DNA from: a virus
Direction: 5' to 3' (one strand)
Virus record (IMG/VR): IMGVR_UViG_3300023179_008171
Coordinates: 1 to 22,824 of that record
DNA: 22,824 nt
Positions 4,005-22,824 of the stretch are shown here, piece by piece. A program made the position numbers and the translations under genes. The notes beneath the pieces are model-generated. The model was not told where the DNA came from. It made no database searches and worked only from the letters and a program-made list of their open reading frames with translations. Numbering within the stretch: the stretch's first letter is position 1; each line of letters begins with the position of its first letter.

Positions 4005-4008
4005 TTAT

Positions 4009-4082
4009 CTGACCGTAGCTCAGCCGGAGAGAGCAACGTATTTCTAATCCGTCGGTCGGGGGTTCGAATCCCTCCGGTCAGG
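4009..4082 (+). tRNA. tRNA-Arg (anticodon TCT)
   Basis: Acceptor CTGACCG pairs with CGGTCAG. The D stem is GCTC/GAGC, the anticodon loop is TTTCTAA (anticodon TCT), and the T loop is TTCGAAT between GGGGG and CCCTC. The anticodon stem has one T-C mismatch. CCA is not encoded (GCAACC follows), unlike the other tRNAs here. It reads AGA, the common Arg codon of AT-rich phages. Confidence 0.88.
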
Positions 4083-4111
4083 CAACCAGACATCTCTGAA
4101 AAAATCCACAA

Positions 4112-4753: not shown

Positions 4754-4761
4754 CCAAAAAT

Positions 4762-5439
4762 ATGATAAAATTTAAATGTTTACTACCTGGTCTAAAAGAT
4801 TATATGCCAATTATACCAATTGGTGATTATAATTTTGACTGGGTAAAACGACTGTACAATTTCGAAGAATCTTTTGATGTAAGAGAATTAAAGACAAGTA
4901 AATGTCCTGGCATTTTTTCTATTATGTCCAAGGGTTGGATTCAAAGAGCATATCAAGATATACACATTAAAACATTCGAAGAAGATCAACTTATAGAAAT
5001 TAGATGTAATTTTGATCAAAGGACTTCCAAGTACGGTAAATACATAGGTAAATATGTTTCATCCCACAATCCAAATCAATTAACAATACATAAAAAATTT
5101 CAACCAAGTACATCTAAAATTATTATTAAAATACAAAGTCCCTGGATAGCTGAAATACCAAAAGGTTATTCATTACTAATGATGCCTGTTGCTTATAATG
5201 ACGCTGTTCATTTTACTGCAGCAACAGGTCTTATTAAAAATACCAACTTTCTAAATGTACAGTTATATTGGCATTCGCCAGATAAGGAAAACGTAATTGA
5301 AAAAGGTACTCCACTGAATCAAATGATTTTAATAAAAGATATATCTAATGATTTTGAACTAGAAGAGATATCCAATATAGACGAATTTATAAATGAAACT
5401 AGCAATTCTCACTTCGAAAAGTTTAAGCCTAATAAATAG
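4762..5439 (+). CDS. Beta-rich phage protein of unknown function
   Basis: This encodes 225 residues and is not firmly recognised. IQSPWIAEIPKGYSLLMMPV (124-143) and ENVIEKGTPLNQMILI (176-191) resemble a phage family with the pattern PW.i.tP.GYS ... ieKGTP..Q, probably a double-stranded beta-helix or cupin-like fold. It may be a dioxygenase-like or carbohydrate-binding protein, but no HxD metal triad is obvious. The stop codon overlaps a late-promoter-like AATAAATA. Confidence 0.65.
   Translation: MIKFKCLLPGLKDYMPIIPIGDYNFDWVKRLYNFEESFDVRELKTSKCPGIFSIMSKGWIQRAYQDIHIKTFEEDQLIEIRCNFDQRTSKYGKYIGKYVSSHNPNQLTIHKKFQPSTSKIIIKIQSPWIAEIPKGYSLLMMPVAYNDAVHFTAATGLIKNTNFLNVQLYWHSPDKENVIEKGTPLNQMILIKDISNDFELEEISNIDEFINETSNSHFEKFKPNK
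5431..5438 (+). promoter_or_regulatory. T4-type late promoter variant (AATAAATA)
   Basis: One mismatch from TATAAATA. It lies in front of a repeated ribosome-site cassette whose second copy (6272) carries the exact consensus. Confidence 0.45.
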
Positions 5440-5458
5440 TAAAAACTAAGGAGATGAC

Positions 5459-5492
5459 ATGCCAAGATTAAAGAGCATATGAAAGAAATTTA
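5459..5492 (+). pseudogene. Deletion remnant of the small basic gene at 6299-6463
   Basis: Bases 5432-5467 repeat 6273-6307 (ATAAATAGT, CTAAGGAGATGACATG and the first codons) almost exactly. Bases 5468-5491 repeat the 3' end of the same gene from 6438. The 130 bases in between (6308-6437 of the intact copy) are missing, which shifts the frame: the remnant reads only MPRLKSI before TGA. Confidence 0.8.
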
Positions 5493-5501
5493 TCTTATCT
5501 T

Positions 5502-5576
5502 CTCCGGTTAGTTCAGTTGGTAGAATGCCTGCTTTGGGAGCAGGAGGTCGGGGATCGTGACCCTCACCGGAGACCA
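5502..5576 (+). tRNA. tRNA-Pro (TGG), second copy with a non-canonical T arm
   Basis: Acceptor CTCCGGT pairs fully with ACCGGAG, followed by A and CCA. The anticodon arm CCTGC-TTTGGGA-GCAGG is identical to the first tRNA-Pro. The T arm is one base shorter than in the first copy, and the loop reads ATCGTGA instead of TTCGAAT. The usual T54 and A58 are A and T. It may be decaying or functionally divergent. Confidence 0.75.
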
Positions 5577-5601
5577 CAGTTAGCCCATTAAAGGAAAAAA
5601 A

Positions 5602-6276
5602 TTGCATAAATTTTTTGAAAAATTCGACTTCATAACTAACGATAAATCTATCTATTTAGAAGATGTTATAGAATTTAGTGAAGATTTCTGCGATTGGAAT
5701 CAAATAGAATATGCAGTAAATCACCCCTATCTTTTTAAATTTGAATTAATAGATTCAAATTCAAATAAAATTATTATTCCTGAGAATAATTATATGTGGA
5801 CAGACCATCCAACTCAAAGTAATAAATTTATTATTGATAATATAAATCTTGGAAATGGTTTAGTTATAACTAGATGGGATGATGCTAATCATTTCACTAA
5901 TAATTTTTGTAAAATGCTAGATAACACCTTTGATGTTGCTTCATCTGCACACGTTTATTGTGGTTTGGCTGGGTCTAAATCGTTGAAACTTCATACAGAT
6001 GAACCTCCCAATTTTATAATTCAGATTGAAGGAAAAACGCGATGGAGAGTTTTTAAAAATCGGTTATCTTCCTTGTATAGATCAGGGAAATTTGTACCTA
6101 ATGAAAATGATCTTGAATTAGATTTTGAAATAACTATGAAGCCAGGAGATCTGCTTTATGTCCCCAATAAGGTTTATCATAAAGCAATGCCCGATCAAAA
6201 AAGAATTTCTATTAGTTTTCCTTGTTGGCCGACTTCTAATAAACAAGACAGAAATTATTATAAGATAAATTTATAA
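5602..6276 (+). CDS. Cupin_8/JmjC-type 2-oxoglutarate Fe(II) oxygenase
   Basis: This encodes 224 residues with a TTG start, supported by AAGGA 8 bases upstream and no better ATG. H131-T-D133 and H193 form the iron triad. QIEGKTRWRVF (141-151) and PGDLLYVPNKVYHKA (181-195) are the usual flanking strands of cupin_8/JmjC hydroxylases such as the ribosomal oxygenases RoxA and NO66. Members hydroxylate protein side chains or small molecules using 2-oxoglutarate and O2. The substrate cannot be told here; a ribosomal, host regulatory or virion protein are all possible. It lies between the deleted and intact copies of a repeated cassette. Confidence 0.8.
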   Translation: MHKFFEKFDFITNDKSIYLEDVIEFSEDFCDWNQIEYAVNHPYLFKFELIDSNSNKIIIPENNYMWTDHPTQSNKFIIDNINLGNGLVITRWDDANHFTNNFCKMLDNTFDVASSAHVYCGLAGSKSLKLHTDEPPNFIIQIEGKTRWRVFKNRLSSLYRSGKFVPNENDLELDFEITMKPGDLLYVPNKVYHKAMPDQKRISISFPCWPTSNKQDRNYYKINL

Positions 6277-6279
6277 ATA
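6272..6279 (+). promoter_or_regulatory. T4-type late promoter (TATAAATA)
   Basis: Exact TATAAATA, 20 bases before the start codon of the small basic gene and overlapping the stop codon of the oxygenase gene. Confidence 0.65.
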
Positions 6280-6298
6280 GTAAAACTAAGGAGATGAC

Positions 6299-6463
6299 AT
6301 GCCAAGACCAAAGAAAAATAATACTGAAGTGAAACCTAAAAAGAAAACTATAAAAACACAAGAAAATAATACAGAAAAAGATAAAAAAATAAATATAGGG
6401 TATTTGGATGCCAATGGCGTTATTGATTGGGATAAACTTAAAGAGCATATGAAAGAAATTTAA
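6299..6463 (+). CDS. Small Lys-rich protein
   Basis: This encodes 54 residues (MPRPKKNNTEVKPKKKTIKT...) ending in GYLDANGVIDWDKLKEHMKEI. The first 32 residues are strongly basic, and the C-terminal 22 look like a small folded or helical binding motif. The ATG has CTAAGGAG upstream and an exact late promoter 20 bases before it. A deletion-damaged second copy lies at 5459. Short basic proteins under late promoters in T4-like phages are often DNA-binding or packaged, but no function is known here. Confidence 0.75.
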   Translation: MPRPKKNNTEVKPKKKTIKTQENNTEKDKKINIGYLDANGVIDWDKLKEHMKEI

Positions 6464-6731
6464 TCTAATCTTCATCTTGCACAGCATCACCAAAAGATTA
6501 AATATTAATATATAATTAGATTTATATTACTGAATTTCATATTAAACAGGTACTTTTAAACTCAGATGATACGACATTTTTAAAAGAAATGCGGAATGGT
6601 TCAGTACATAAAACTGAGTATCGTAAATCAGAGTGATAAAGATACCTGCCCCACCATATAAACTTTGGGTTTTAACACAGTATTCAATACTTTCTAAAAC
6701 TTAGGTTTTGTCAATTTAATCAGGAGAGAAA
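6464..6731 (+). other. Gene-free stretch with structured-RNA potential
   Basis: No open frame with a ribosome site lies here. It holds a candidate branched RNA (6547-6648), then short hairpins: AGTAT/ATACT near 6680 and AAAAC-TTAG-GTTTT near 6697. The CAGGAGAG ribosome site of the next gene is at 6721-6728. Confidence 0.5.
6547..6648 (+). ncRNA. Candidate structured RNA, three-way junction
   Basis: By hand-folding: CAGGTA (6547-6552) pairs with TACCTG (6643-6648), CTTT (6553-6556) with AAAG (6638-6641), ACTC (6560-6563) with GAGT (6631-6634), GAT (6565-6567) with ATC (6627-6629), and TACGA (6570-6574) with TCGTA (6621-6625). Inside lie two hairpins: CATTT/AAATG (6575-6591) and TCAGT/ACTGA (6601-6617). 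It is not a tRNA. It could be a small RNA or a 5' leader element for the gene at 6732. Confidence 0.45.
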
Positions 6732-7376
6732 ATGAGATTACAAGAATTAGCAGCAAGATTGGTCGTTGTAGAAACAAAATTAGCTACCTTAACAGGGGTT
6801 ACACCCAATACTAATCAGCCCAATGATATTGAAGATTTAGACAAAAGACTTTCGGTTGTGGAAGTTCAAGTAGATCGTTTACTATCAGAAAAAGCTGAAA
6901 AACATATTGCAGAGATTGTAGCTGCGCCTGAAGATAAATCATTGACATCGGTGGCAGACGTTGTTGCTTTGTCTGCTAGTGCAAATGTCCCCCAAGCTGC
7001 AGAAATAGTTGCAGATGTTTTATCTGTTCAAATGGAATCTCCAGCTATTCATGATCCTGAAGTTGCTGCAATAGTTACTGCAGTAATTAAAGCAGTTGTA
7101 AATTCTGATCCTAGTGTTGTTGCTGATCCAGAAGCAATTAAAGCAGTTATTACTGATACTGTTGCACAATTACCAGCACCATCGGCAGATGCTGAAGAGC
7201 ACGCTACTGCTGCAATTGTAGAAATTTTATCTGCAGCTACAGGGCAAGAAGTTTCTTCAGATGAGCATGCAGAAATAAAAGATGCGGTAGTTACACCCTC
7301 TGATGTAGTTTTAGATACTATTGAAGCAAGATTAACTGTTGCCGAAGCAAAGGTTGAAAGCCTGTTGGGAAAGTAA
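6732..7376 (+). CDS. Ala/Val-rich protein with terminal coiled-coil segments
   Basis: This encodes 214 residues with CAGGAGAG 4-8 bases before the ATG. Residues 1-50 (LAARLVVVETKLATL ... LDKRLSVVEVQVDRLL) and 195-213 (IEARLTVAEAKVESLLG) carry the same heptad-like RL.vvE.kv..L pattern at both ends. The middle is made of low-complexity Ala/Val-rich helices with recurring units such as DPEVAAIVTAVIKAVV and DPEAIKAVITDTVAQL. There is no signal peptide or membrane span. The protein is probably an all-helical elongated or oligomeric protein. I do not recognise the family; a virion or scaffold-like role is a guess. It stands alone between the structured stretch and the lipid operon. Confidence 0.75.
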   Translation: MRLQELAARLVVVETKLATLTGVTPNTNQPNDIEDLDKRLSVVEVQVDRLLSEKAEKHIAEIVAAPEDKSLTSVADVVALSASANVPQAAEIVADVLSVQMESPAIHDPEVAAIVTAVIKAVVNSDPSVVADPEAIKAVITDTVAQLPAPSADAEEHATAAIVEILSAATGQEVSSDEHAEIKDAVVTPSDVVLDTIEARLTVAEAKVESLLGK

Positions 7377-7388
7377 TAGATGTAATTA

Positions 7389-7411
7389 AAAAATGGTTTC
7401 ATAGCATTTTT
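7389..7411 (+). terminator. Weak AT-rich hairpin
   Basis: AAAAATG (7389-7395) pairs with CATTTTT (7405-7411), with the T run inside the stem. It lies between the Ala/Val-rich gene and the lipid operon and may act as a terminator or be incidental. Confidence 0.3.
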
Positions 7412-7435
7412 AGGTATTAAAAACCAAAAACTATA

Positions 7436-8209
7436 ATGCATTATAATTCGATCTTTATATCTGATATTCATTTAGGTAGTAAAGGTTGTAAAGCAGAAAT
7501 ATTAGTTAATTTTTTAAAATACAATACTGCTGATAAATTATATCTGATTGGTGATATAGTTGATGGTTGGAAAATACAACAAAACAAGTGGGCTTGGAAA
7601 CAGGCCCACACCAACGTTGTTCGTCAAATATTAGGTCATGCTAAGCAGGGAACTGAGGTTTTTTATATAGCAGGCAATCATGACGAATTTCTTAGACCAA
7701 TGATTCCTTACGGAATATCATTCGGCAGAATTCATATTTTTAATCAAACTATTCATAATGGTATTGATGGAAAACGATACTTAGTTATACATGGTGATTT
7801 ATTTGACGGGATTACTCGTCTTGCACCCTGGATAAGTTTTTTAGGCGACAAAGCATATGAGTTATTACTCTCTATCAACACTGCCTTTAATTACTGGAGG
7901 CATAGATTTGGATTTGGTTATTGGAGTCTTAGTCAGTTTCTTAAGCAACGTGTTAAGCAAGCTGTGGATTTTATATTTCATTTTGAGCGCAATCTTACTG
8001 ACTATTGCCGTAAGCGTGGTTTTGACGGAATTATTTGCGGACACATCCACAAACCAGAAATCAAAACCATAGAAGGTATTGTATATATGAACGATGGCGA
8101 TTGGGTAGAAAGTTGCAGCGCTTTGGTTGAACATCTTGATGGGCACTGGGAAATTATATATTGGACAAAAGAATTACAAGATGTGGATACTATTACTTAT
8201 AGTAGTTAA
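7436..8209 (+). CDS. plcP: PlcP-like metallophosphoesterase (phospholipase C type, LpxH-related)
   Basis: This encodes 257 residues. The metallophosphoesterase motifs are complete: D10-x-H12, GDIVD (39-43), GNHDE (80-84), HGD (119-121), GHIH (202-205). Beyond these, the sequence follows PlcP of alphaproteobacteria: GCKAE..VNFLKY, YLIGDIVDGWKI, AWKQAHTNVV, YLVIHGDLFD, FNYWRHRFGFGYWSLSQFLK and GDWVESCSALVEHLDG. PlcP cleaves head groups from phosphatidylglycerol and related phospholipids to give diacylglycerol, which the glycosyltransferase Agt then glycosylates. An Agt-like gene ends the same operon. The main alternative is UDP-diacylglucosamine hydrolase LpxH or LpxH2, but the YWSLSQ and GDWVESC stretches favour PlcP. 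No clear ribosome site is seen before the ATG. Confidence 0.82.
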   Translation: MHYNSIFISDIHLGSKGCKAEILVNFLKYNTADKLYLIGDIVDGWKIQQNKWAWKQAHTNVVRQILGHAKQGTEVFYIAGNHDEFLRPMIPYGISFGRIHIFNQTIHNGIDGKRYLVIHGDLFDGITRLAPWISFLGDKAYELLLSINTAFNYWRHRFGFGYWSLSQFLKQRVKQAVDFIFHFERNLTDYCRKRGFDGIICGHIHKPEIKTIEGIVYMNDGDWVESCSALVEHLDGHWEIIYWTKELQDVDTITYSS

Positions 8210-8351
8210 TATTTACGACCCTATGGATGTACCTGGCAGAATAAATTTGTATTTCAAAGATCAACAAAGTTGTGAATATGCATTACAATCAATGACAGGT
8301 TATATCAAATTTCCATGGTTTAAAGTAGAGGGCAAGTGTGAAAAAAAATAG
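8181..8351 (+). CDS. Small probable secreted or membrane peptide with two cysteines
   Basis: This encodes 56 residues from the ATG at 8181. It begins with a short hydrophobic stretch (MWILLLIVVNIY), followed by about 40 polar residues with two Cys (QQSCEYAL and VEGKCEKK), plausibly a periplasmic disulfide. It overlaps the end of plcP by 29 bases and the next start by 14, in different frames. A frame staying open across both junctions fits the compact operon style. An upstream in-frame ATG at 8127 would remove the signal-like start and is less likely. Function unknown. Confidence 0.55.
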   Translation: MWILLLIVVNIYDPMDVPGRINLYFKDQQSCEYALQSMTGYIKFPWFKVEGKCEKK

Positions 8352-9141
8352 TTTTGATCTAGTTAGTGATTTACATATTGACCATTGGGGTCGAAGTTAT
8401 GAATTCGACTGGTTACACAGTCAAAAAAGTGATACATTGGTTATTGCAGGAGACACCAGCGATAGTATTGATATAACATGTGAATATTTACACAAGCTTA
8501 CTAATTATTATACCGATGTTTTAGTTGTTGATGGTAATCATGAACATCAACATCACATGGAAAATTTAGAAGAATCCATACAATATTGGAAATCCTGCGT
8601 ATCTCAAACATTGGCAATCTATCTTGGAGATACACAGCCCATAATTAATGGTGTAAAATTTATTGGAATCTGTGGATGGTGGAGTTTTGATTTTGGTCTA
8701 CCAAATATAAAACCTGAGCAAACCATTCTTACGGGCAAAAATAAGTATGAACTCACTGATACCATCATAAAAAATCAACTAAATCAAAGTTTACTGGATG
8801 CTAATAGTTTAACTAATAAGATGATAGATGCCACATTAAATTCTGCTGTTAATGATATTGTTGTGGTGAGCCATAGTTTACCGCATTCAAGTTGCATAAG
8901 TTGGAATAGATATCCTCCAGATTACAATATGGTCGGTTGTTATGGAAATTCCAGATTCCAATGGACTTTAGATGCAGATATCAACAAAAAGTGTCGCTAT
9001 TGGGTTTTCGGGCATAACCATGATACTAAAAATATACCTTATGATTATCTAAATTTTATTAGCAATCCTCGTGGCCGAAGAGAAGATTGGAATCGAGTAA
9101 ATTATCAAGCTATAGAAATAGAAATTAATTCATCTAAATGA
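8338..9141 (+). CDS. Calcineurin-like metallophosphoesterase
   Basis: This encodes 267 residues from a GTG start with GAGGG 6-10 bases upstream. Motifs are DLH (11-13), GDTSD (38-42), GNHEH (66-70), VVSHSLPH late in the chain and VFGHNHD near the end, the full metal-binding set of the calcineurin fold. It is different from the PlcP-like gene upstream, with no YWSLSQ or GDWVESC stretch. It resembles the single-domain phosphoesterases common in T4-like phages, whose substrates (nucleotide, phosphoprotein or phosphodiester) are mostly unknown. Its stop overlaps the next start (ATGA). Confidence 0.8.
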   Translation: MKKNSFDLVSDLHIDHWGRSYEFDWLHSQKSDTLVIAGDTSDSIDITCEYLHKLTNYYTDVLVVDGNHEHQHHMENLEESIQYWKSCVSQTLAIYLGDTQPIINGVKFIGICGWWSFDFGLPNIKPEQTILTGKNKYELTDTIIKNQLNQSLLDANSLTNKMIDATLNSAVNDIVVVSHSLPHSSCISWNRYPPDYNMVGCYGNSRFQWTLDADINKKCRYWVFGHNHDTKNIPYDYLNFISNPRGRREDWNRVNYQAIEIEINSSK

Positions 9142-9743
9142 ATTTTATTACAGATTGTGATACTTTAGAATCTATAGATGTTAATGATCTTTGGATTATA
9201 GATAAATTTATTTTAGCAAAAAAATTAGGCTATATTTGTGGACCAGCAGGTGTTTTGCCCTCCGAGGAAGGAAGATATATTGTACGTCCTTGCATCAATG
9301 TTAGAATGCTATCTAAAGGTGCTAAATTTATGTGGTTAAATACTATTGATGATATAATACCAGATGGATTTTTTTGGTGCGAGGTATTTGAGGGTCGTCA
9401 TAGAACTTTTGATTATAATTGGGGCAAACAGATATTGGCAGTAGAAGGTTTTAGATCTGATTCGAATAGATTAGACAGATTTAGTCGATGGACAAAAATT
9501 AAGGATGAATTCAAGCTACCAGACTTTATTCAAGAAATTGCTAATAGATATGAGTGGTTTAATGTAGAAACCATAGGCGATAAAATTATAGAAGCACATT
9601 TTAGATATAATGATGATTTTGCCAATCACAATGCAAACACAATTATTCCTATCTGGAAAGAAGAGTTTTATGCTAGTCAGGAAGGAGATAGAATAGGATT
9701 TCTATTAAAAGATAATGAAAAAAATATTAATAGTCACGGATAA
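9138..9743 (+). CDS. Conserved phage protein, ATP-grasp-like
   Basis: This encodes 201 residues starting in an ATGA overlap. The chain DLWIIDKFILAKKLGYICGP, then GVLPSEEGRYIVRPCINVRM, then FFWCEVFEGRHRTFDYNW reads like a reduced ATP-grasp domain: a Lys/Arg-rich lid, then an acidic strand. This family is frequent in marine T4-like phages and its function is unknown to me. ATP-grasp enzymes join carboxylates to amines or thiols. The usual Glu/Asn metal ligands are not clearly placed, so the fold call is tentative. The position between a phosphoesterase and the glycosyltransferase suggests co-expression only. Confidence 0.6.
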   Translation: MNFITDCDTLESIDVNDLWIIDKFILAKKLGYICGPAGVLPSEEGRYIVRPCINVRMLSKGAKFMWLNTIDDIIPDGFFWCEVFEGRHRTFDYNWGKQILAVEGFRSDSNRLDRFSRWTKIKDEFKLPDFIQEIANRYEWFNVETIGDKIIEAHFRYNDDFANHNANTIIPIWKEEFYASQEGDRIGFLLKDNEKNINSHG

Positions 9744-10719
9744 CTTAGCCGACCAAATCAATGGGGTGGTCACGACATACAAAAATATTGAAGCGTTTGC
9801 TATTCTTGATGGTTTTGAGTTTGTTTATATTACTCCCAATGAGTTTAATTATTTTGATTGCCCCGTCTATAACGAAGTCAAGATTGCTATTCCGAGATCA
9901 ATGGGAGAAAAGATAAAAGAGATAGATCCGAATTATGTTCATATCGCCACAGAGGGACCTGTGGGTTTATGGGCCAGAGCATATCTTACAAAACATAATC
10001 TTAGCTACAATACTGCTTATCATACTAAATTTCCTGAAGGACTCAAAGCTCTTATCGGTTTATCGGAAAGAATAACATGGCGATACATAAAATGGTTTCA
10101 TAAGCATACTGGTAAAGTATTAACTACAACTGAAACCATGGTGAAGGAATTAAAGGACCATAAATTAGTTGCAGATATAATTCCTTGGACTAGAGGCGTA
10201 GATCGAAATATTTTTAATTCAGAACAACGTAGTAAAACTAATGAGACGTTGAATCTAGTTTGTGTTAGTAGAATAAGTAAGGAAAAAAATTTAGATGATT
10301 TCTGCAAAATAGATTATTTTCATGCAAAGAAAATTCTTGTAGGCGATGGTCCTTATAGAGAAGAATTACAAGAAAAATATCCTGATGTAAAATTTGTTGG
10401 ATTTAAAGTAGGTAAAGATTTAGCATATTATTATGCCAATGCAGATGTATTTGTATTTCCTAGTCGATGGGAAACATTTGGTATTGTTATGATTGAGGCA
10501 ATGGCGTGCGGCACCCCGGTAGCAGCATATCCATGCCAAGGTCCCATGGAAGTGGTAGATCAAGGAAAAACTGGATTCCTAAGAGATAATTTAAAGTTAG
10601 CAATTACTGAATGTTTAACTCTAAATAGATTTGATGTGGAAGCAAGAAGTTTAAAATGGTCTTGGGAAGAGGCATGGAAAGTTTTTAAAAATAATCTTAC
10701 TCCCATTAATAAATACTGA
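9715..10719 (+). CDS. agt: GT4 glycosyltransferase, Agt/SqdX-like (diacylglycerol glycosyltransferase)
   Basis: This encodes 334 residues, overlapping the previous gene by 29 bases. The N-terminal Rossmann half has DNLADQINGVVTT (9-21), VHIATEGPVGLWAR (75-88), YHTKFPE (102-108) and PWTRGVD (157-163). The nucleotide-sugar half has SRISKEKNL (185-193), VGDGP (209-213) and the E-x7-E motif ETFGIVMIE (253-261). HIATEGP..AR and YHTKFPE are the signature of the Agt, SQDG synthase and mannosyltransferase MgtA branch of GT4. In alphaproteobacteria, agt lies next to plcP and makes mono- or diglycosyl-diacylglycerol when phosphate is short. The sugar donor cannot be read from the sequence. SqdX without SqdB, or a capsule or teichoic-type glycosyltransferase, are the alternatives. 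Confidence 0.82.
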   Translation: MKKILIVTDNLADQINGVVTTYKNIEAFAILDGFEFVYITPNEFNYFDCPVYNEVKIAIPRSMGEKIKEIDPNYVHIATEGPVGLWARAYLTKHNLSYNTAYHTKFPEGLKALIGLSERITWRYIKWFHKHTGKVLTTTETMVKELKDHKLVADIIPWTRGVDRNIFNSEQRSKTNETLNLVCVSRISKEKNLDDFCKIDYFHAKKILVGDGPYREELQEKYPDVKFVGFKVGKDLAYYYANADVFVFPSRWETFGIVMIEAMACGTPVAAYPCQGPMEVVDQGKTGFLRDNLKLAITECLTLNRFDVEARSLKWSWEEAWKVFKNNLTPINKY

Positions 10720-10728
10720 TTTATTAAT
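10705..10728 (+). other. AT-only inverted repeat with late-promoter-like box
   Basis: ATTAATAAA (10705-10713) pairs with TTTATTAAT (10720-10728) around TACTGA, which contains the stop codon of the agt-like gene. AATAAATA (10708-10715) is one mismatch from the T4 late promoter and is well placed to serve the glycine-rich adhesin gene. Confidence 0.45.
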
Positions 10729-10741
10729 AAAAATAATGTAA

Positions 10742-11767
10742 ATGGCTATAAATTTCAATGGGGCCAAAATTACAGGCGCAACGATTGGGAATAATTATAC
10801 TCCCGCCCCAGGTGATGAATTGTATTCCTTTTCATCATTTACATTTACCTCTGCCAATGTTGCAGGCAGAGCAGGTCCAACTTTATCCCAATGTCTAGCA
10901 AACTATAATACTGTAACCAATACCTGGTTAAATGATATTAATTACTTTAATGTGCCTGTGCAAGGTATTCAACTCTGGACAGTACCAAAGACAGGCATTT
11001 ATAGAATTACTGCAGCAGGTGCCCGCGGAGGTAAAAGTCACTTTGCAAATTTAGAAGGCGGATTCGGGGCACAAATAATTGCAGATATATCTCTCACAAA
11101 AAATGAAACTATAGCTATAGTTGTTGGGCAAGAAGGAAGAGATAGAAGTAATGTATCGGGTGTAACTTTTTTAGGTGGAGGCGGAGGTGGTGGCACATTT
11201 GTTTACAATAATACCACCACAACATATTATGTTGTTGCCGGCGGCGGGGGCGGAGCTGCATCTACAAGAACAGGAATTCTAACAAATCAAAATACTGCAC
11301 ATGGTAGAGGAAATACAATACATGGCACAAACGTAACTATTCAGGGTGGATTCATTGCATTCGGTGGTAGAGATGGTAAAGGTGCAAATGTTTCCAACAG
11401 AAATATGCTTTATGGTGGTCCAGGTGCAGGAATATTATCAGATGGACAATCAGCAAATGGATTGCAGGGAAGATCCAAAAATAACAATTGGATCGGTGGA
11501 AATGTAATAGTTAATTCTCCCAATTCTGTACAAGGTGGTTTTGGTGGAGGAGCAGCATCAGGCAATGGAGATAATAATGCCACCAACTCTTACGCATGGT
11601 CTGGTGGTGGAGGTGGATATAGTGGTGGCGGCTCTGGCGGCAACGGAGGAGCTTCGGACGGACAATATGGTGGGGGCGGTGGTTCTTATGTTTCCTCGGG
11701 ATATGTTAGTAACGTATCAGGTATAAACAACAGTAACGGTTATGTCGTAATTACATTTATTTCCTAA
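10742..11767 (+). CDS. Glycine-rich tail-fibre adhesin-like protein
   Basis: This encodes 341 residues. Residues 70-135 form a beta-rich lead (VPKTGIYRITAAGARGGKSH). This is followed by poly-Gly segments (FLGGGGGGGTFVY at 143-155, VVAGGGGGAAS at 164-174, then WSGGGGGYSGGGSGGNGG and GGGGGSYVSSGY near the end). Such spaced polyglycine runs with aromatic residues occur in gp38-type phage adhesins and in glycine-rich domains of the ALK-receptor type, where they form polyglycine-II lattices that present variable loops. A role in host receptor recognition at a fibre tip is likely. The end NSNGYVVITFIS is a typical closing strand. The ribosome site is weak; a late-promoter variant lies about 30 bases upstream. 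Confidence 0.72.
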   Translation: MAINFNGAKITGATIGNNYTPAPGDELYSFSSFTFTSANVAGRAGPTLSQCLANYNTVTNTWLNDINYFNVPVQGIQLWTVPKTGIYRITAAGARGGKSHFANLEGGFGAQIIADISLTKNETIAIVVGQEGRDRSNVSGVTFLGGGGGGGTFVYNNTTTTYYVVAGGGGGAASTRTGILTNQNTAHGRGNTIHGTNVTIQGGFIAFGGRDGKGANVSNRNMLYGGPGAGILSDGQSANGLQGRSKNNNWIGGNVIVNSPNSVQGGFGGGAASGNGDNNATNSYAWSGGGGGYSGGGSGGNGGASDGQYGGGGGSYVSSGYVSNVSGINNSNGYVVITFIS

Positions 11768-11782
11768 TTGAACAACTATTGC

Positions 11783-11811
11783 TTGACAGCAATATCTTTT
11801 TCTTATATAAT
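11783..11811 (+). promoter_or_regulatory. Consensus sigma-70 promoter, leaderless arrangement
   Basis: TTGACA (11783-11788), exactly 17 bases, TATAAT (11806-11811). The expected start is at about 11818, at the ATG (11817). The 15 bases CTTTTTCTTATATAA also precede the SWIM-type gene. Confidence 0.82.
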
Positions 11812-11816
11812 ATATT

Positions 11817-12338
11817 ATGAAAATATTTAATGAAGTATTATCCAATGATCTTATCAATGAAATTTTCTCAGAGATAAAATCAAAAACTAGTGCTGCTAAA
11901 TGGGCTGCAAGTGTTCTATTATGGGATAATACTATATTGAATAACGTAATGGCACCTGTATTACAAACACCTGCAGAATATCATGGTGAAAAGATTCTTC
12001 AAGAAGTCAAAAAATTTTTACCAGATCATATCAAAGAATACAAAGCATATGTGCAGTATTATATTTGGACAAAAAATTCCTCAATATCCTTACATTTAGA
12101 TAGTAAACATGCATACGGAGCCACCATCTACTTAAATAGAGAATGGATAATCGATGAGGGTGGTATTTTTTTGTGGAAGGATAAACAAGAAAAAACAGAT
12201 TGCTACAGAGCTTATGTACCAAAATACAATAGTATGATTTTAAATGATGATAATGAGAAACATCTAGTGACACCCGTAAATCCTTTTTCTAGAAACTTTA
12301 GAATAACGGTACAAATTTTCGGTAAGAAAGAAGCCTGA
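11817..12338 (+). CDS. 2OG-Fe(II) oxygenase (prolyl-hydroxylase-like fold)
   Basis: This encodes 173 residues. SLHLDSKHAYGATIYLN (91-107) carries the H93-x-D95 pair. EKHLVTPV (147-154) gives the distal H149, and RNFRITVQIF (159-168) the 2-oxoglutarate-binding Arg162. This is the standard 2OG-FeII_Oxy order found in many T4-like phages. The substrate is unknown. It has a full-consensus host-type promoter whose start coincides with the ATG and no ribosome site, so the message is probably leaderless. The stop codon TGA is inside the acceptor stem of tRNA-Leu, an overlap of 6 bases, so the transcript may continue into the tRNAs. Confidence 0.82.
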   Translation: MKIFNEVLSNDLINEIFSEIKSKTSAAKWAASVLLWDNTILNNVMAPVLQTPAEYHGEKILQEVKKFLPDHIKEYKAYVQYYIWTKNSSISLHLDSKHAYGATIYLNREWIIDEGGIFLWKDKQEKTDCYRAYVPKYNSMILNDDNEKHLVTPVNPFSRNFRITVQIFGKKEA

Positions 12339-12420
12339 GTGGCGAAATTGGAGAAACGCAACAGACTTAAAATCTGTCACATTAGAAACACTGCCGGTTC
12401 GAATCCGGCCTCAGGTACCA
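12333..12420 (+). tRNA. tRNA-Leu (anticodon TAA)
   Basis: Acceptor GCCTGAG pairs with CTCAGGT (one G-T), then A and encoded CCA. The anticodon stem ACAGA/TCTGT encloses CTTAAAA (anticodon TAA). A long variable arm of class II type is present, and the T loop is TTCGAAT between GCCGG and CCGGC. It overlaps the upstream gene's last two codons. Confidence 0.93.
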
Positions 12421-12423
12421 ATT

Positions 12424-12500
12424 GCCCCTTTAGCTCAGTGGTCAGCAGCGCCCGGCTCATAACCGGTGGGTCCTTGGTTCAATTCCAAGAGGGGGCACCA
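12424..12500 (+). tRNA. tRNA-Met (anticodon CAT)
   Basis: Acceptor GCCCCTT pairs with AGGGGGC, then A and CCA. The anticodon loop is CTCATAA and the T loop TTCAATT between CTTGG and CCAAG. The CAT anticodon could also be a lysidine-modified tRNA-Ile reading ATA, which is common in phages and AT-rich genomes. The first acceptor pair (G-C) argues against an initiator. Confidence 0.9.
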
Positions 12501-16005: not shown

Positions 16006-16761
16006 ATGTCTATAAAAAATATTAGAGAAAAGAAGCTTTTGATTAACTTATCCAAAACATTTGGACAAGAGATTGATCCTTCTATAGTCGAAGAAGTAAA
16101 TAATCAAAAAGAGTTTGAACAAAATTTAAAAAATTCTATAAGGCAAAATTGGTTAAAAGATTTACAAGAAGCTCTGCAGAATGTAACAGGTGAAGTAAAT
16201 CAAATAAAAGAACAAACAGAATATCCTAAACCTCCCTCTTTAGATAATCTTCAAGAATTTTTAATTAATGATGAAAAAGAAAATATATTAGAAGCGAAAA
16301 CAGAATCACTTGCAGAAAGAGCAGCAAAATCAATCAAACTTAACGAAAATTCTTATAGTCAACCTGATCCGCTTTTAGTTCCGCCGGATATTAATTCTAT
16401 TCAAAAGAAGATTAAATTCTTAGAGCAATGGTTGGGGAAGATATCGGCAAATGGCCCGGGTGGAGGAGCAGGAAATACTATAACACTAGATTATCCTGTT
16501 AAATTGATAACAGGTAATTACACACTAACGAAAAAAGATTATTACGTAGGAGTGAACGCTAATTCTTCCGTAACTATCACTCTTCCAAGCTCAATTGGTT
16601 TTTCTGGTAGAAAAGTAATAATTAAAGATGAATCCGGTCATTGTTCCTCAAATCCCATTACTGTACTTGGAAACGTGGATAATGATTCTGGTGGTTTCGT
16701 CTTGAGTATTAACAATGGCTCAATACAAATGATATACAGAGAAGGCTGGAGAATAATATGA
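16006..16761 (+). CDS. Phage fibre/baseplate-type structural protein
   Basis: This encodes 251 residues. Residues 1-110 are charged and helical (probable coiled coil or attachment part). A Pro/Gly hinge (LVPPDINSIQ ... NGPGGGAG) follows. Residues 160-251 are a beta domain: VNANSSVTITLPSS, GRKVIIKDESGHCSSNPITV and IYREGWRII. The ItLP..iG..g+.viIKDesG...npItv pattern closes many phage fibre and neck-whisker proteins. It overlaps the next gene by 4 bases (ATGA). No ribosome site is obvious. Confidence 0.75.
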   Translation: MSIKNIREKKLLINLSKTFGQEIDPSIVEEVNNQKEFEQNLKNSIRQNWLKDLQEALQNVTGEVNQIKEQTEYPKPPSLDNLQEFLINDEKENILEAKTESLAERAAKSIKLNENSYSQPDPLLVPPDINSIQKKIKFLEQWLGKISANGPGGGAGNTITLDYPVKLITGNYTLTKKDYYVGVNANSSVTITLPSSIGFSGRKVIIKDESGHCSSNPITVLGNVDNDSGGFVLSINNGSIQMIYREGWRII

Positions 16762-18038
16762 CATATTTGTTTACATCCAATAATATAATTACCGGTGAAG
16801 TTGAGGTAAAGAATGATTCCGGTAATGCCTTAACTGTAACGCTACCTGTTACCAATTATGATTCTTTTGGTAGATTTAGAATCAGTGCCCCTCTTACACT
16901 ATTTGATTCTTCACAAAGATACTACGATAATGATAAATTTGCAACATCAAATACTGCAACTACAAGTTATTCTTTTCAGGCAAATACTGCTAGTATAGAC
17001 ATGGTAGTTGATACTACATCATTGGCAAAAGTTTATAGAGAAAGCTACAGAGTATTTGCCTATCAACCAGGTAAATCCTTACAGATCATTAACACATTTG
17101 TCATGAATGCCAGCAAGGCAAATCTCAGACAACGTGTTGGATATTTTAGCACAGACAATGGTATTTTTCTGGAGCAATCTGATGATGTGTATTTTGTAAA
17201 ACGATCTAAAGTTACTGGATCAGTTGTGGATACAAAAATTGCACAATCTAACTGGAACATAGACCCCATGGATGGCACCGGTCCTTCTGAATTGACTTTA
17301 AATCTGACCTATCCTCAAATCTTTTGGATGGACATAGAATGGTTGGGTGTCGGAACAGTAAGAATGGGTTTTGTTATCAATGGACGATTTATTCATTGTC
17401 ATTCCATACACCATGCAAATCTTTCTAGTTCGCCTGCAGGCGCTTATATGCAAACTGCATGTCTGCCAGTTAGATATGAGATAGAAAACACTGCTGCAAC
17501 TGCAAGTTCTTCTACACTTAAACAAATATGCTCTACGGTGATTTCCGAGGGCGGGTATGAACTATCAGGAAAAATGCGAACCATTGGTATGCAACCTATT
17601 ACTGCTGCTAATTATAATCTGGCAACAGCCAATGTATTCTATCCGGTGGCCAGTATTAGATTGAAATCCACTCATTTAGATGCCGTTGTTATTCCTAAAA
17701 ATATAGCTTTAGTTGGAACAACACAAAGTGATTTTAGATATAAAATTATTTCGGGTGCCAATGTTACCGGGGGCTCTTGGGTTTCCGATGGAGCAGATTC
17801 TGCTGTAGAATATAATCTTTCTGGTACTTCTGTTACTGGCGGAACAGATTTAAGATCTTCTTATCTTGTATCTACAGGTAGTCAGAGTTTAACCGTTGAT
17901 CTAAGAGATGGTGATTTTAAATTTCAATTAGAAAGAGATAGTTTTACTGCAACTCCTAAAACTTTTACTCTAGTTGTAACTGCTAAAAATAACAATGATA
18001 AAATACTAGCTGCCTTAGATTGGGAAGAGATAACTTGA
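16758..18038 (+). CDS. Marine-phage virion structural protein (fibre-type)
   Basis: This encodes 426 residues. FGRFRISAPLTLFDSSQRYY, then KSLQIINTFVMNASKANLRQ, RVGYFSTDNGIFLEQ and WMDIEWLGVGTVRMGFVING are features of a large phage structural family that I know from marine T4-like phages. The core is probably a jelly-roll or lectin-like sandwich with a trailing beta domain (SVTGGTDLRSSYLV ... TFTLVVTAKNNNDK). It probably sits on tail fibres or the capsid surface. The start is coupled to the previous gene by ATGA, and the stop lies at the foot of a terminator hairpin. Confidence 0.78.
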   Translation: MTYLFTSNNIITGEVEVKNDSGNALTVTLPVTNYDSFGRFRISAPLTLFDSSQRYYDNDKFATSNTATTSYSFQANTASIDMVVDTTSLAKVYRESYRVFAYQPGKSLQIINTFVMNASKANLRQRVGYFSTDNGIFLEQSDDVYFVKRSKVTGSVVDTKIAQSNWNIDPMDGTGPSELTLNLTYPQIFWMDIEWLGVGTVRMGFVINGRFIHCHSIHHANLSSSPAGAYMQTACLPVRYEIENTAATASSSTLKQICSTVISEGGYELSGKMRTIGMQPITAANYNLATANVFYPVASIRLKSTHLDAVVIPKNIALVGTTQSDFRYKIISGANVTGGSWVSDGADSAVEYNLSGTSVTGGTDLRSSYLVSTGSQSLTVDLRDGDFKFQLERDSFTATPKTFTLVVTAKNNNDKILAALDWEEIT

Positions 18039-18100: not shown

Positions 18101-19522
18101 ATGGAAAAAACAGCTGTTGTGGCCTGGGGCAGAGCCAATCCGCCCACAATAGGTCATCAAAAATTATTTGATAAAACTATAGAACACGCCAAAGAAGTGG
18201 GCGGTGTCCCCCATATCTACGTTTCGCATTCGCAAGATAGTAAAAAAAATCCACTTTCTGCTTCGGAAAAAGTAGGTTTAATTAAAAAAGCCTATAAAGA
18301 ACACAGTAATCTTAGTGTTCGTTCCTCTACTAAAGAAACTCCTAGTTTACCTGATATTGCAAAAAAACTACACAACGAAGGATACCATCATTTACATGTA
18401 GTGGCTGGTTCTGATAGAGTACAACAATATCATGATTTATTACACAAGTATAATGGTAAAGAGGGACATTATAATTTTAAATCTATAAAAGTAGTATCTG
18501 CTGGGCACAGGGATCCGGATGCTGAAGGAACAGAAGGTATGTCTGGATCTAAATTAAGATCCCATGCCATTGCCGGTGAGAAAGAAAAATTCAAAAGTGG
18601 AATAATGCATGGTTTGTCTGACAAAGATAAAGAAAATGTCTACAATAAAGTAAGAGCATCACTTAAAGAAGATTACGAAAATTCAAATCGTTTTGATTGG
18701 GGAACACCTGGCGGCACCAAATATATGCTTAACATGATGCCCTATGGAAAAATTGTTTGTCCTGAGGGCGAATACTGGTGTAATACGGAAGGTAAATGTA
18801 AACCTATAGATATGAAAAAAGAAATGAGTATAAGAGAACAATATGTGCTAGGACACATTTATAAATTGGGCGAAATTATAGAAACATTGGATGGATTAGA
18901 GGGCGAGATAGTATACAGAGGATCAAACTATATCACATTACAATTAGAAAATAAATCTACAATAAAACGTTGGATTACAGATATAAATGAAGAAAAATAT
19001 AAAACCAAAACTGGCGCACTTAAACAAAGACCAAGTGTTAAAAACTACTCAGATGTAAATAAGAAAAATGCTCCCAAGGGAGTAGTCTCGCCCTCTGCTG
19101 TTAAAAAGAATCAAGATAAAGCAAAAGAATTAGTAAAGAAAAATCCAGATGATCCAAGCCTACTTCAACAATGGTCGACTGATAAAGGCGTAAAAACTAA
19201 ACCTTCTGTATATACCAAAGCTTACAGAGAAAGACATGGATTAAAATCTGAATCAAATGTTCCTTATTTACTAATGTCCCCCGGACAAAAACAACAATTA
19301 CAAGAAACAAATAATCAATTAGAATATGGTGGATACAAAACTAAGAATTTTGATATCAGCCCAGAAGCAAGAAACAAATTTACAGATTTAATAGATAAAA
19401 TAGGTCCCTATGAGGCACCTCCGGGCCCGAATGAACCGGTGATAGCAAAGATACAAGCAGGAATCACAATGAAACCTGAAAATATTAGACATATGCAATT
19501 TAGGCAATACACGGAGTTATAA
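18101..19522 (+). CDS. Cytidylyltransferase-like enzyme fused to a modular phage C-terminal region
   Basis: This encodes 473 residues. Residues 1-160 are a nucleotidyltransferase: VAWGRANPPTIGHQKL carries the HxGH-like T-I-G-H (16-19), and MSGSKLR (147-153) is the ISxTxxR-type motif. The fold transfers NMP as in NMNAT, PPAT and CTP:phosphocholine enzymes; the substrate is unknown. Residues 215-235 hold three Cys (VCPEGEYWCNTEGKCKP), probably a small metal or disulfide knot. Residues 248-297 are SH3-like (HIYKLGEIIETLDGLEGEIV, then WITDIN). The C-terminus (300-473) is Lys/Pro-rich and flexible. Such mosaics are typical of packaged virion proteins of large phages. It overlaps the Dps gene by one base (TAATG). 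Confidence 0.75.
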   Translation: MEKTAVVAWGRANPPTIGHQKLFDKTIEHAKEVGGVPHIYVSHSQDSKKNPLSASEKVGLIKKAYKEHSNLSVRSSTKETPSLPDIAKKLHNEGYHHLHVVAGSDRVQQYHDLLHKYNGKEGHYNFKSIKVVSAGHRDPDAEGTEGMSGSKLRSHAIAGEKEKFKSGIMHGLSDKDKENVYNKVRASLKEDYENSNRFDWGTPGGTKYMLNMMPYGKIVCPEGEYWCNTEGKCKPIDMKKEMSIREQYVLGHIYKLGEIIETLDGLEGEIVYRGSNYITLQLENKSTIKRWITDINEEKYKTKTGALKQRPSVKNYSDVNKKNAPKGVVSPSAVKKNQDKAKELVKKNPDDPSLLQQWSTDKGVKTKPSVYTKAYRERHGLKSESNVPYLLMSPGQKQQLQETNNQLEYGGYKTKNFDISPEARNKFTDLIDKIGPYEAPPGPNEPVIAKIQAGITMKPENIRHMQFRQYTEL

Positions 19523-19953
19523 TGAATCCTTTATTAGTAGCATTACAAAAAACGCTTGGCGATACTTTTAATTTTTATTTAAAAGCGCAATATTATCATT
19601 GGAATGTCGAAGGTGTATATTTTTATTCCTTACATAAATTTTTTGGTGAAATTTACGAGGATGCGCAGGGCGCAACTGATACGATTGCTGAACTAATAAG
19701 AACACTTGATGCACCGGCACCTGGGCATAAAGAAAGCTCCATGTTATCTAGTATTATGTCAGATGGCATTGTTTCAGATGGAAAAACTATGGCTGCTAAT
19801 CTTGAAGCCGATAATAATCTTGTTATCATTTCTTTAATGACTGCATATAAAATAGCAGAAGAACAAGGTGAAATAGGTATTTCTAATGCTCTACAAGATA
19901 GAATTACAATTCATCAGAAGAACGGTTGGATGTTAAGAGCTACCGCAAAATGA
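19522..19953 (+). CDS. dps: Dps-like ferritin-fold protein
   Basis: This encodes 143 residues. YYHWNVEGVYFYSLHKFFGE (24-43) and DAQGATDTIAELIRTLDAPA match the Dps family: H26, H38, D53 and E57 align with E. coli H51, H63, D78 and E82. The ligand aligned with D67 is G42, with E43 next to it, so the ferroxidase centre is shifted or weakened. Dps dodecamers bind DNA and detoxify iron and peroxide. There is no Lys-rich N-terminal tail, so DNA binding by that route is unlikely. It lies in the late virion block, between two modular proteins with one-base and four-base overlaps, so it may be packaged or structural. Confidence 0.8.
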   Translation: MNPLLVALQKTLGDTFNFYLKAQYYHWNVEGVYFYSLHKFFGEIYEDAQGATDTIAELIRTLDAPAPGHKESSMLSSIMSDGIVSDGKTMAANLEADNNLVIISLMTAYKIAEEQGEIGISNALQDRITIHQKNGWMLRATAK

Positions 19954-20962: not shown

Positions 20963-22824
20963 ATGAAATCATTTTTTAAATTAAGAGAAGAATTGGGTTC
21001 ATGCTGCGATGAATGCGAGGATGATTCTTTGTATGGTTCAGTAGAAGAAGATTTTGAACCAACAGGCGAAGAGCAGTATGAAGATTGGGAAGATAGTATT
21101 GAAGAAGGCAATGGATTGTGGGCAAATATTCATGCAAAAAGACAAAGAATTAAAGCTGGATCGGGCGAACATATGCGAGAACCAGGAAGTAAAGGTGCAC
21201 CAACTACCGCAGCATTAAAAAGAGCTGCTGAATCAGTTCAAGAGGCTACTTATACTTATAAACCCTTTGGTGGTTCATTAAAATATAATAGAACAACAAC
21301 TGGTCATGAGGTGGTTGGTACAACAAATGATGAACAAAATCGCAAGGGCGCCAATATTCTTAAACATAAAAATGGTGGATACTTTGCAGCATCTGGTTCA
21401 TCAACACGACAAGAAGGCGACATTCATAAAACGCCCGAAGAAGCAGCTAAAGCATTCCATGCAAAACGAAAAGAAAAATTAGTTGAAGCCGAGACACCTT
21501 TATCCTACATACTAAAAAATCCTGGTAAAAAATTACCCATGCATCTAGATCCAAATAGACCATTTGATCCAGATATGCCCAGGAAAAATCCAGTGGCCAA
21601 AGCAGGCAAATATGGGCAAGGTTTCTCTATAGCAAAACACTTGGCCAAACAGGGCATGGCCAGTGTAAATAAACAAAAAATTAAAGAAACACATGATCAG
21701 GAATATCAAGCATCATATAGTGATAATAATATGGAATCATTACGAAACTGGAAAAATGAAGTCCCCGCACAATATGCTGAGCATTTAATGAAAACATTTG
21801 GTGCCCCCGATTATGCTACTAACGATTTCGTAATCTGGAAAAATACCGATGGATTTAAGCGTATAGAAATAAAAGATGAATATGTAATGCATACTAGTCC
21901 AGAACCTCATTACGATTATTGTTATAGTTTTATTGATCTTAAAGTCCCACATACTTTAGCCACATCATTGGCTGATTGCAGTGAAAGTATTCTCATTGAT
22001 TTTCTTAAAAACGAGGTGGGGGCAAGATGCGCTAGTTTAGCAGCAAATGCCGTGACTTTAAATTTTGTAATGGATGTGGTTGCAGGTAGAACTAAACCCA
22101 CTAAAGAAGAATACGAATCAAGAATAATGAAAATGCATAATGCATTTGATCAGGGTAAAACTTTTGAAATAGATTGGTGGCCAGACGAAAGCCATGATAC
22201 TGATCCAAACAATTCTTATTATGCTGAAGATACTGACAATTTGAAAGAAGCTAAAAATCTTGCACAACAGGCAGCTATTGCTATAGCCATGAAAAAAGCA
22301 GGCAAAAAACCTAAGAATGTTGACGAAGCCAAGTATCAAAAATTATCTTCTCGACAAAAATTTACTAATTCTTTGGCACGTGCAGGCTATGATGTAAATG
22401 CCAGCTCAAAACGAATACAAGATCTTTTAGCCAAACAAAAGAAAGAGCGTGAAGAAAGAGAAAAGCAAAGTGTGGCGGAAGGCGATAGTGGAGCAAAATA
22501 TAAAGTTAAATCTATTGGTAAAGATAGTAAAGGTGATTATTATATGAGCCCAAGTACTGGTAAAAAAGTATATAAGTCAGGAGTGAACAAAGGCGATCAC
22601 GAAAATCCTAAAACAGGAGAGATTAAAAAACGTGTGGCGGAAGGCTCATTAACAGAGATGGATAAAAGCAGCCCGCAACCAGGTCGTGATGGTAAGGTTA
22701 GCCATAAAACTTACGGTAGTCGTGACAACTACAAACTGGGTGATCCAGAAAGAATGGCGAAACAAGTATCTGCAGAAAAAGCCAAAAAAGATGCTCTTGA
22801 CATTTTGAAGAAGCAAGGTGTGGC
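20963..22824 (+). CDS. Long modular phage protein (polyprotein-like), open at the window end
   Basis: At least 620 residues, running off the right edge. Modules in order: Cys-rich acidic N-terminus (1-45); GLWANIHAKRQRIKAGSGEH followed by MREPGSKGAPT (51-81), a short basic module widespread in phage and plasmid proteins; a Tyr/Gly module with HKTPEEAAKAFHAKRK (95-172); ETPLSYILKNPGKKLPMH (177 on); a globular mixed region (240-425); basic helical segments (430-503); and short Lys/Gly repeats. The joints carry [I/L/V]-x-E-[A/G]: IEE48-G, VQE94-A, LVE175-A, LKE429-A, VDE455-A, VAE506-G, VAE560-G, and probably V620-A at the edge. These resemble T4 prohead protease (gp21) sites, so the chain may be cut in the head and injected. 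The AGG-containing leader gives a normal start. Confidence 0.75.
   Translation, partial: MKSFFKLREELGSCCDECEDDSLYGSVEEDFEPTGEEQYEDWEDSIEEGNGLWANIHAKRQRIKAGSGEHMREPGSKGAPTTAALKRAAESVQEATYTYKPFGGSLKYNRTTTGHEVVGTTNDEQNRKGANILKHKNGGYFAASGSSTRQEGDIHKTPEEAAKAFHAKRKEKLVEAETPLSYILKNPGKKLPMHLDPNRPFDPDMPRKNPVAKAGKYGQGFSIAKHLAKQGMASVNKQKIKETHDQEYQASYSDNNMESLRNWKNEVPAQYAEHLMKTFGAPDYATNDFVIWKNTDGFKRIEIKDEYVMHTSPEPHYDYCYSFIDLKVPHTLATSLADCSESILIDFLKNEVGARCASLAANAVTLNFVMDVVAGRTKPTKEEYESRIMKMHNAFDQGKTFEIDWWPDESHDTDPNNSYYAEDTDNLKEAKNLAQQAAIAIAMKKAGKKPKNVDEAKYQKLSSRQKFTNSLARAGYDVNASSKRIQDLLAKQKKEREEREKQSVAEGDSGAKYKVKSIGKDSKGDYYMSPSTGKKVYKSGVNKGDHENPKTGEIKKRVAEGSLTEMDKSSPQPGRDGKVSHKTYGSRDNYKLGDPERMAKQVSAEKAKKDALDILKKQGV
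22470..22824 (+). repeat. Recurring GTGTGGCGGAAGGC repeats in the modular gene
   Basis: The same GTGTGGCGGAAGGC word occurs at about 22472 and 22632, and its beginning (GTGTGGC) is at the last seven bases (22818-22824). Each encodes V-A-E-G at a module joint, 160 and 186 bases apart. The identical nucleotide sequence suggests recent module duplication or homogenisation. Confidence 0.7.

What the first reader, a model, noticed from the sequence alone, without database searches (positions are those of the whole stretch)
20963..22824. Modular protein punctuated by prohead-protease-like sites
At least seven [I/L/V]-x-E-[A/G] tetrapeptides lie at the joints between distinct modules (E48, E94, E175, E429, E455, E506, E560) and another seems to begin at the window edge. 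With ordinary composition one would expect about one or two by chance (rough estimate). T4 gp21 cuts packaged proteins at L/I-x-E followed by A or G. The protein may be a packaged polyprotein cut into several injected effectors.
Basis: partly seen in the sequence, partly recalled or inferred. Interest (0 to 1): 0.75.

Follow-up and report, generated by a model that had tools for sequence, protein, structure and literature searches.

The report
Phage polyprotein built from swappable cassettes
A phage gene strings together small protein modules whose joints look like cutting sites for the phage's own head-assembly protease, and many joints are also a nearly fixed 18-letter DNA seam at which related viruses swap, gain and lose modules, so it may be a plug-in system for proteins packed into the virus particle.

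Summary
In detail: ORF 20963-22824 (620 aa, open at the window end) has 7 [ILV]xE[AG] tetrapeptides against 1.12 in shuffles (0 of 2000 reach 7). Relatives show that all seven lie at real module boundaries. The window holds two copies (22466, 22628) and ends inside a third. In uncultured phages the same cassette recurs between unrelated neighbours (56 of 61 pairs), similarity falls to chance at both seam edges, and close relatives differ by whole cassettes. Where seams have drifted, Glu at P1 and an aliphatic at P3 are kept, as a T4-type protease requires. S77 protease and gp23 co-occur in all 8 contigs holding the head cluster; one carrier type is homologous to an MS-detected virion protein of phage PA5oct. 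Best reading: a packaged polyprotein, cut by the prohead protease, whose cassettes recombine at a cleavable seam. Boundaries, seam and exchange are shown; cleavage, packaging, injection and effector roles are inferred, and no protease was seen in the window's own fragment.

The parts
20963..22824 (+). Modular ORF, 620 codons, runs off the window end
   Evidence: relatives
20963..20989 (+). CTS-like N-terminus MKSFFKLRE (possible cut after E9)
   Evidence: resembles KSFKDLRE|A inside relatives L016-L018; family-level N-terminal site enrichment; inference for this ORF
21107..21244 (+). Module aa 49-94 GLWANIHAKR..., phrog_16028; a free ~50-aa gene, often next to scaffold/capsid genes, in cultured podophages
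21245..21487 (+). Module aa 95-175
   Evidence: L002, L003, L008
21488..22249 (+). Module(s) aa 176-429, with a conserved domain at aa ~243-429 matched in 10 contigs
   Evidence: structure model too poor to use
22250..22327 (+). Module aa 430-455 (NLAQQAAIAIAMKKAGKKPKNVDE)
   Evidence: L003, L010; L078, L154
22328..22480 (+). Module aa 456-506 (AKYQKL..KQSVAE)
   Evidence: many relatives, different neighbours
22466..22483 (+). 18-bp DNA seam copy 1, CAAAGTGTGGCGGAAGGC (1 mismatch)
22481..22642 (+). Cassette aa 507-560, flanked by seams; confident 54-aa mini-fold
22628..22645 (+). 18-bp DNA seam copy 2, AAACGTGTGGCGGAAGGC (2 mismatches)
22643..22822 (+). Cassette aa 561-620, unfinished (GSLTEMDKSSPQPGRDG...)
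22814..22824 (+). DNA seam copy 3, truncated by the window end (CAAGGTGTGGC)
   Evidence: last 30 bases; L024 shows a like end continuing as DILKKQGVAE|G
16758..18038 (+). Upstream virion structural protein (phrog_1645), places the array in a late/virion gene region
18101..19522 (+). Cytidyltransferase-like protein; PGRFQPFHxGH-type neighbours also lie beside the arrays in G021 and G028
19522..19953 (+). Dps/ferritin-like protein; a similar protein lies near the array in G021

Best explanation
The ORF is the first part of a virion polyprotein. A short N-terminal capsid-targeting-like peptide brings it into the prohead core; the phage's S77 (T4 gp21-type) protease cuts after the Glu of each [V/L/I]-x-E|[G/A] joint and frees a set of cassettes (18-268 residues, median 71), which stay in the head and enter the host with the DNA, like T4 internal proteins. 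The VAE|G joints double as an 18-bp DNA seam: crossovers inside the seam add, drop, duplicate or exchange whole cassettes in frame, and because the seam encodes the cut site every newcomer is released wherever it lands. Shown: module boundaries, DNA-level seam, in-frame exchange with breakpoints inside the seam, co-occurring protease in relatives. Inferred: cleavage, packaging, injection, effector roles, and that ordinary phage recombination (not a dedicated recombinase) does the swapping.
For: Site excess. Mosaic relatives with the same modules in different carriers. Seam 18-mer with codons far from background; loci were found with a fully degenerate codon pattern. 452 DNA-defined seams, 418 in open frame 0 vs 4 and 1 in the other frames; among 232 non-QGVAEG seams P1 Glu changed 3%, P3 13% (28 of 31 to M/L/I), P1' 44%, P6 47%. 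Homology stops at seams 33% vs 9% at control points. 61 cassette pairs, 56 with both neighbours unrelated. Identity drops to chance at both seam edges, with the crossover inside. L016/L017/L018, with 89-98% identical flanks, differ by whole cassettes. Tandem cassette duplication in L151. 4-fold sites 87% same in seam vs 67% in bodies. S77 and gp23 in the same 8 contigs; gp23 N-terminal regions there hold LxE at the likely propeptide end. In G021 and G028 the most clearly enriched genes besides the mosaics are the gp22-position core proteins, and T4 gp22 is a known multi-cut substrate (PMC9958956). N-terminal sites 28% vs 7.6% in other ORFs. PA5oct sp278, detected by ESI-MS/MS, is homologous to five mosaic carriers (E down to 4e-24). 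One module is a free gene elsewhere.
Against: No protease or capsid gene seen in the window fragment; nearest long relative G001 (112 kb) and three contigs of 200-262 kb (G023, G024, G030) show no S77 even with a profile, perhaps because they are incomplete. Few cassettes have a recognised domain, none in PADLOC. In T4 some cut core proteins leave the head as peptides, so cassettes might be waste. No cleavage data. V at P3, on which the excess rests, is not the classical L/I of T4.
Confidence: 0.6

Rival explanations
1. Prohead-core filler: the arrays are scaffold/core proteins that are cut into pieces and expelled before DNA packaging, like T4 gp22, gp67 and gp68; cassettes have no role in the host.
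For: T4 gp22/gp67/gp68 are cut to peptides that leave the head (PMC9958956); gp22-position proteins share the site enrichment.
Against: Cassettes are conserved modules, one modelled as a compact fold (54 aa, pLDDT 84.5), highly diverse and exchanged, some with enzyme-like domains (GNAT, ParB_N); a core filler would not need this. One module is kept as a free gene in other phages.
Confidence: 0.2
2. The joints are only flexible linkers; conservation is explained by DNA alone, the 18-mer being a recombination seam or nuclease target, with no proteolysis.
For: Strong DNA-level conservation beyond the peptide; crossovers map inside the seam.
Against: Amino-acid changes avoid P1 and P3 while P6 and P1' change freely; many other joints have ordinary codons but the same [VLI]xE[AG] pattern; homologues of the window cassette end in RVAE, GVAE, NIAE, KIRE, KINE, QVKE, SIKE, always [VI]xE where the end is covered.
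Confidence: 0.12
3. As the best explanation for the protein, but cassettes are moved by a dedicated site-specific recombinase or homing-type nuclease that recognises the 18-mer, integron-like.
For: Near-invariant 18-mer across many contigs, not in 50,697 cultured phage records.
Against: No inverted repeat or extended conservation around the seam; no nuclease or integrase obvious in the array neighbourhood of G021 (first residues only, not annotated); homologous recombination over short repeats would suffice. Not searched exhaustively.
Confidence: 0.25

Closest known systems
T4 internal proteins IPI/II/III and Alt (capsid-targeting sequence, gp21-processed, injected)
   Same: Often a short N-terminal targeting-like peptide ending in [LIVMF]xE, cut-after-Glu type sites, S77 protease and gp23 in related phages; diverse cargo behind a common packaging signal (PMC3012670, PMC5694885)
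   Different: Many modules in one chain with repeated sites, joined by a conserved DNA seam and exchanged; packaging and cutting not demonstrated
T4 gp22 core protein
   Same: Multiple [ILV]xE[AG] sites; the gene between S77 and gp23 is the other clearly enriched gene in G021/G028
   Different: gp22-position proteins are conserved single-family scaffolds, not mosaics of exchangeable cassettes
Polyvalent proteins of phages and plasmids (Iyer et al. 2017, PMC5512222)
   Same: Long multi-module proteins thought to be packaged and delivered
   Different: Those are defined by recognisable enzymatic domains, often with their own peptidase; here mostly small unknown modules, no own peptidase found, an external S77 protease implied, and a DNA seam
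Short conserved boundary/linker sequences at module joints of lambdoid phages (own knowledge)
   Same: Short conserved DNA at joints lets modules recombine
   Different: Here inside one gene, repeated in tandem, in frame, and encoding a probable protease site
Integron gene cassettes (own knowledge)
   Same: Arrays of exchangeable cassettes with a common junction
   Different: No attC-like palindrome, no integrase seen, cassettes are in-frame parts of one protein

Membership tests
S77 (gp21-type) prohead protease substrate | Aliphatic P3 and Glu P1 at cut sites | tested here: met
   7 sites, P1/P3 selectively kept across relatives
S77 (gp21-type) prohead protease substrate | S77 protease encoded in the same genome | tested here: inconclusive
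   8 of 8 relatives with gp23 have it; the window is a 22.8-kb fragment without a head cluster; G001, G023, G024, G030 none found
S77 (gp21-type) prohead protease substrate | Observed cleavage | not testable with these tools
   needs virion proteomics or purified protease
T4-type internal (capsid-targeted) protein | 10-20 aa N-terminal targeting peptide ending in a cut site | tested here: inconclusive
   family level 28% vs 7.6% of other ORFs; this ORF, MKSFFKLRE|E, fits LxE but not A/G at P1'
T4-type internal (capsid-targeted) protein | Present in virions | tested here: inconclusive
   carrier homologue sp278 of PA5oct is MS-detected; the homology is to other carriers, not to the window ORF
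Polyvalent protein (Iyer 2017) | Recognisable effector/enzyme domains in one chain | tested here: not met
   no Pfam domain above cut-off in the window ORF
Integron cassette array | attC palindromic recombination sites | tested here: not met
   flanks of the seam show no extended conservation that could form a palindrome
Integron cassette array | Associated integrase | not tested
   no search for integrases was made

The most novel reading that the evidence does not exclude
A general phage 'plug-in cargo' system: an 18-bp DNA seam that is both the recombination junction and the code for a prohead-protease site, so that any in-frame cassette landing in an array is automatically packaged, cut free and delivered to the host; arrays act as a shared, rapidly swapped pool of injected effectors among uncultured T4-like and jumbo phages.
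Probability: 0.4. Interest if true: 0.92.

Novelty: new variant of a known kind. Interest (0 to 1): 0.8.

Why it matters
If true, these phages have solved modular cargo loading: one short sequence makes modules both exchangeable as DNA and separable as protein. It would give a large, searchable catalogue of probable phage-delivered proteins (115 cassette families among 170 cassettes in a small sample), explain rapid turnover of internal proteins, and offer a simple design rule for loading phage heads. It also makes a testable link between recombination and proteolytic maturation.

Tried and rejected
Structure of the aa 243-429 domain: model at pLDDT 41, discarded. Structure search with the 54-aa cassette: no PDB match at E<=0.001. 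PADLOC: no hit. Cultured phages: no match for other modules of the relatives and no copy of the 18-mer. Bacterial genomes: 26 scattered 18-mer matches in 257 Gb, about 7.5 expected with even base use, many in high-GC taxa, taken as chance. Simple tetrapeptide counting as a genome-wide detector was rejected as sole evidence because tail-fibre repeats also score. T4 portal profile was too insensitive to judge phage type. Misassembly at the 18-mer was considered: unlikely, since it is shorter than usual assembly k-mers and cassette-indel alleles occur in separate metagenomes, but long reads would settle it. Papers: no report of the motif found (the hits shown are mostly alpha-synuclein papers, none on phage), nor of a seam like this; the library is open-access only.

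Full report
What was claimed and what is there. The ORF at 20963 reads 620 codons to the window edge. It holds seven [ILV]xE[AG] tetrapeptides at the stated residues; shuffling gives 1.12 on average and none of 2000 shuffles reached seven. Of the 23 other window ORFs tested the best has p 0.04. The window is an IMG/VR record of 22,824 bases, so its own head genes cannot be seen.

Relatives are mosaics. A scan of viral contigs brought 24 relatives. Laid side by side they are built from the same pieces in different orders and behind different N-terminal carriers, and most edges read [VLI]xE|[AG]. For the window: the piece 49-94 (GLWANIHAKR...) is a free ~50-residue gene in podophages of Prochlorococcus, Pelagibacter and Synechococcus, beside scaffold and capsid genes in two of those looked at; the joints after 175, 429, 455, 506 and 560 are each followed or preceded by other modules in relatives.

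A DNA seam. Among 87 non-redundant site-rich ORFs, QGVAEG occurs 100 times and 65 copies are the identical 18-mer CAAGGTGTGGCGGAAGGC; Val is GTG in 91% (background 16%), Ala GCG in 93% (background 7%). Conservation ends at the motif on both sides apart from a preceding AAG-like codon, and all 162 exact 15-mer cores found lie in the same reading frame. Joints that are not VAEG use ordinary codons, so there are two classes: seams conserved as DNA, and joints conserved only as peptide. The window has two seams (22466-22483, one mismatch; 22628-22645, two mismatches) and ends within a third. In 25 long contigs the motif (up to 2 mismatches) occurs in 20, always on one strand per contig, with no hit for the reversed control. 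It is absent from 50,697 cultured phage records and near chance level in bacterial genomes.

Cassettes move. Homologous stretches end at seams in 33% of cases against 9% at control points (matches are not independent). Of 170 cassettes between two seams, in 115 families (median 71 aa), 34 families have several members; of 61 homologous pairs in different contigs 56 have both neighbours unrelated. Averaged over 57 such pairs, DNA identity falls from mostly 0.6-0.9 to about 0.3 at both seam edges; the first base follows the left cassette and the last codon tends to follow the right one, so exchange lies inside the motif. DNA identity of cassettes reaches 98.9% between different carriers. L151 carries a tandem duplicate of a cassette single in L192. 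L016, L017 and L018, from three metagenomes and about 89-98% identical in the flanks, differ by whole cassettes.

Why protease sites. Defining seams by DNA alone (up to 4 mismatches in all held DNA, 452 places, 418 in open frame 0) and looking at the 232 that no longer encode QGVAEG: P1 Glu changed in 3%, P3 in 13% and then to M/L/I in 28 of 31, P2 16%, P5 26%, P1' 44%, P6 47% (similar). That is the pattern expected of a cut after [aliphatic]-x-Glu. Independently, homologues of the window's 54-residue cassette end in RVAE, GVAE, NIAE, KIRE, KINE, QVKE, SIKE: [VI]xE wherever the end is covered. T4 gp21 and giant-phage proteases cut after Glu, e.g. ITE-6 and LTE-619 of Alt (PMC5694885).

Protease and packaging context. 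S77 and gp23 profiles hit the same 8 contigs, none alone. In the six gp23 proteins of the jumbo-like group an LxE lies at the likely end of the propeptide (the cut position is my inference). In the two contigs scanned in full that have both a head cluster and several seams (G021, G028) the most clearly enriched genes are the mosaics and the gene between S77 and gp23, in gp22 position; a few further ORFs are more weakly enriched. T4 gp22 is cut into small peptides (PMC9958956). Complete mosaics have a [ILVMF]xE[AG] site within residues 5-20 in 28% against 7.6% of other ORFs and 3.5% in shuffles; examples are MRAQEFITE|G and MRAIEFLTE|A, like T4 internal-protein leaders (own knowledge). G021's capsid protein is 68% identical to that of Pseudomonas phage PA5oct; there MS-detected virion proteins include sp247 with 7 sites against 1.8 expected (this count also allowed Ser at P1'), and sp278, MS-detected, is homologous to the carrier part of five mosaics. 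The window ORF itself is preceded by a virion structural protein, a cytidyltransferase and a Dps-like gene; a cytidyltransferase-like and a Dps-like gene also flank the array of G021 (by inspection of the sequences).

Function of cassettes. Mostly unknown. Recognised in mosaic proteins: GNAT acetyltransferase, ParB_N, GP88, DUF6321, and below cut-off DUF5872 and TAT-like peptides; nothing in PADLOC. The 54-residue window cassette gives a confident small beta-rich model with loose ends at the joints (pLDDT 84.5) and no PDB match.

Weak points. Cleavage, packaging and delivery of this protein are inferred. Protease was not found in the nearest long relative G001 nor in three contigs of 200-262 kb, even with a profile built here; these may be incomplete. 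The ORF set for several statistics was chosen for site richness; the DNA-defined test was made to avoid this. The seam may also be read as a purely DNA element; P1/P3 conservation argues against that being all.

Novelty. The parts have precedents: internal proteins with a targeting leader cut by the prohead protease, and short shared sequences at module joints. I found no report of a repeated in-frame seam that both joins cassettes as DNA and encodes a probable protease site (open-access library only), hence 'new variant of a known kind', with a fully new kind of system as the novel case.

Noticed in passing
window 530-2468: DnaB-like helicase gene broken by an apparent atypically split intein: the upstream ORF ends ...LAGCVHPNTKVRIRFKK*, ~105 bp later a new ATG ORF starts with the rest of the intein, ends ...VSSHN and continues TGVGKSLF.
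   Followed up: partly
window 21107-21244: The GLWANIHAKR module (phrog_16028) is a free small gene in many podophages of abundant aquatic bacteria, function unknown; one record (CRP-810) labels it ribonucleotide reductase A subunit, which looks like a mislabel.
   Followed up: partly
L192:3809-8275 and L149:5748-8642: Some cassettes begin with TAT-like signal peptides (DRRGFLKGLGAAAVAGGAGY), odd for a packaged protein; they might insert in membranes.
   Followed up: no
L059:5389-17271: Tail-fibre-like proteins with many 'NLTEGTNLYFTNARV' repeats; they mimic the site enrichment without being modular polyproteins.
   Followed up: no
L265-L266 (G021 116519-121104): A run of genes with leaders MRANEFTTE, MISKEFIVE, MRSYEIMDE, MRASEFVN near one contig end, the head cluster lying at the other end: a probable block of capsid-targeted proteins.
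   Followed up: no
window 3927-12500: Five tRNA genes (2 Pro, Arg, Leu, Met) scattered between protein genes.
   Followed up: no
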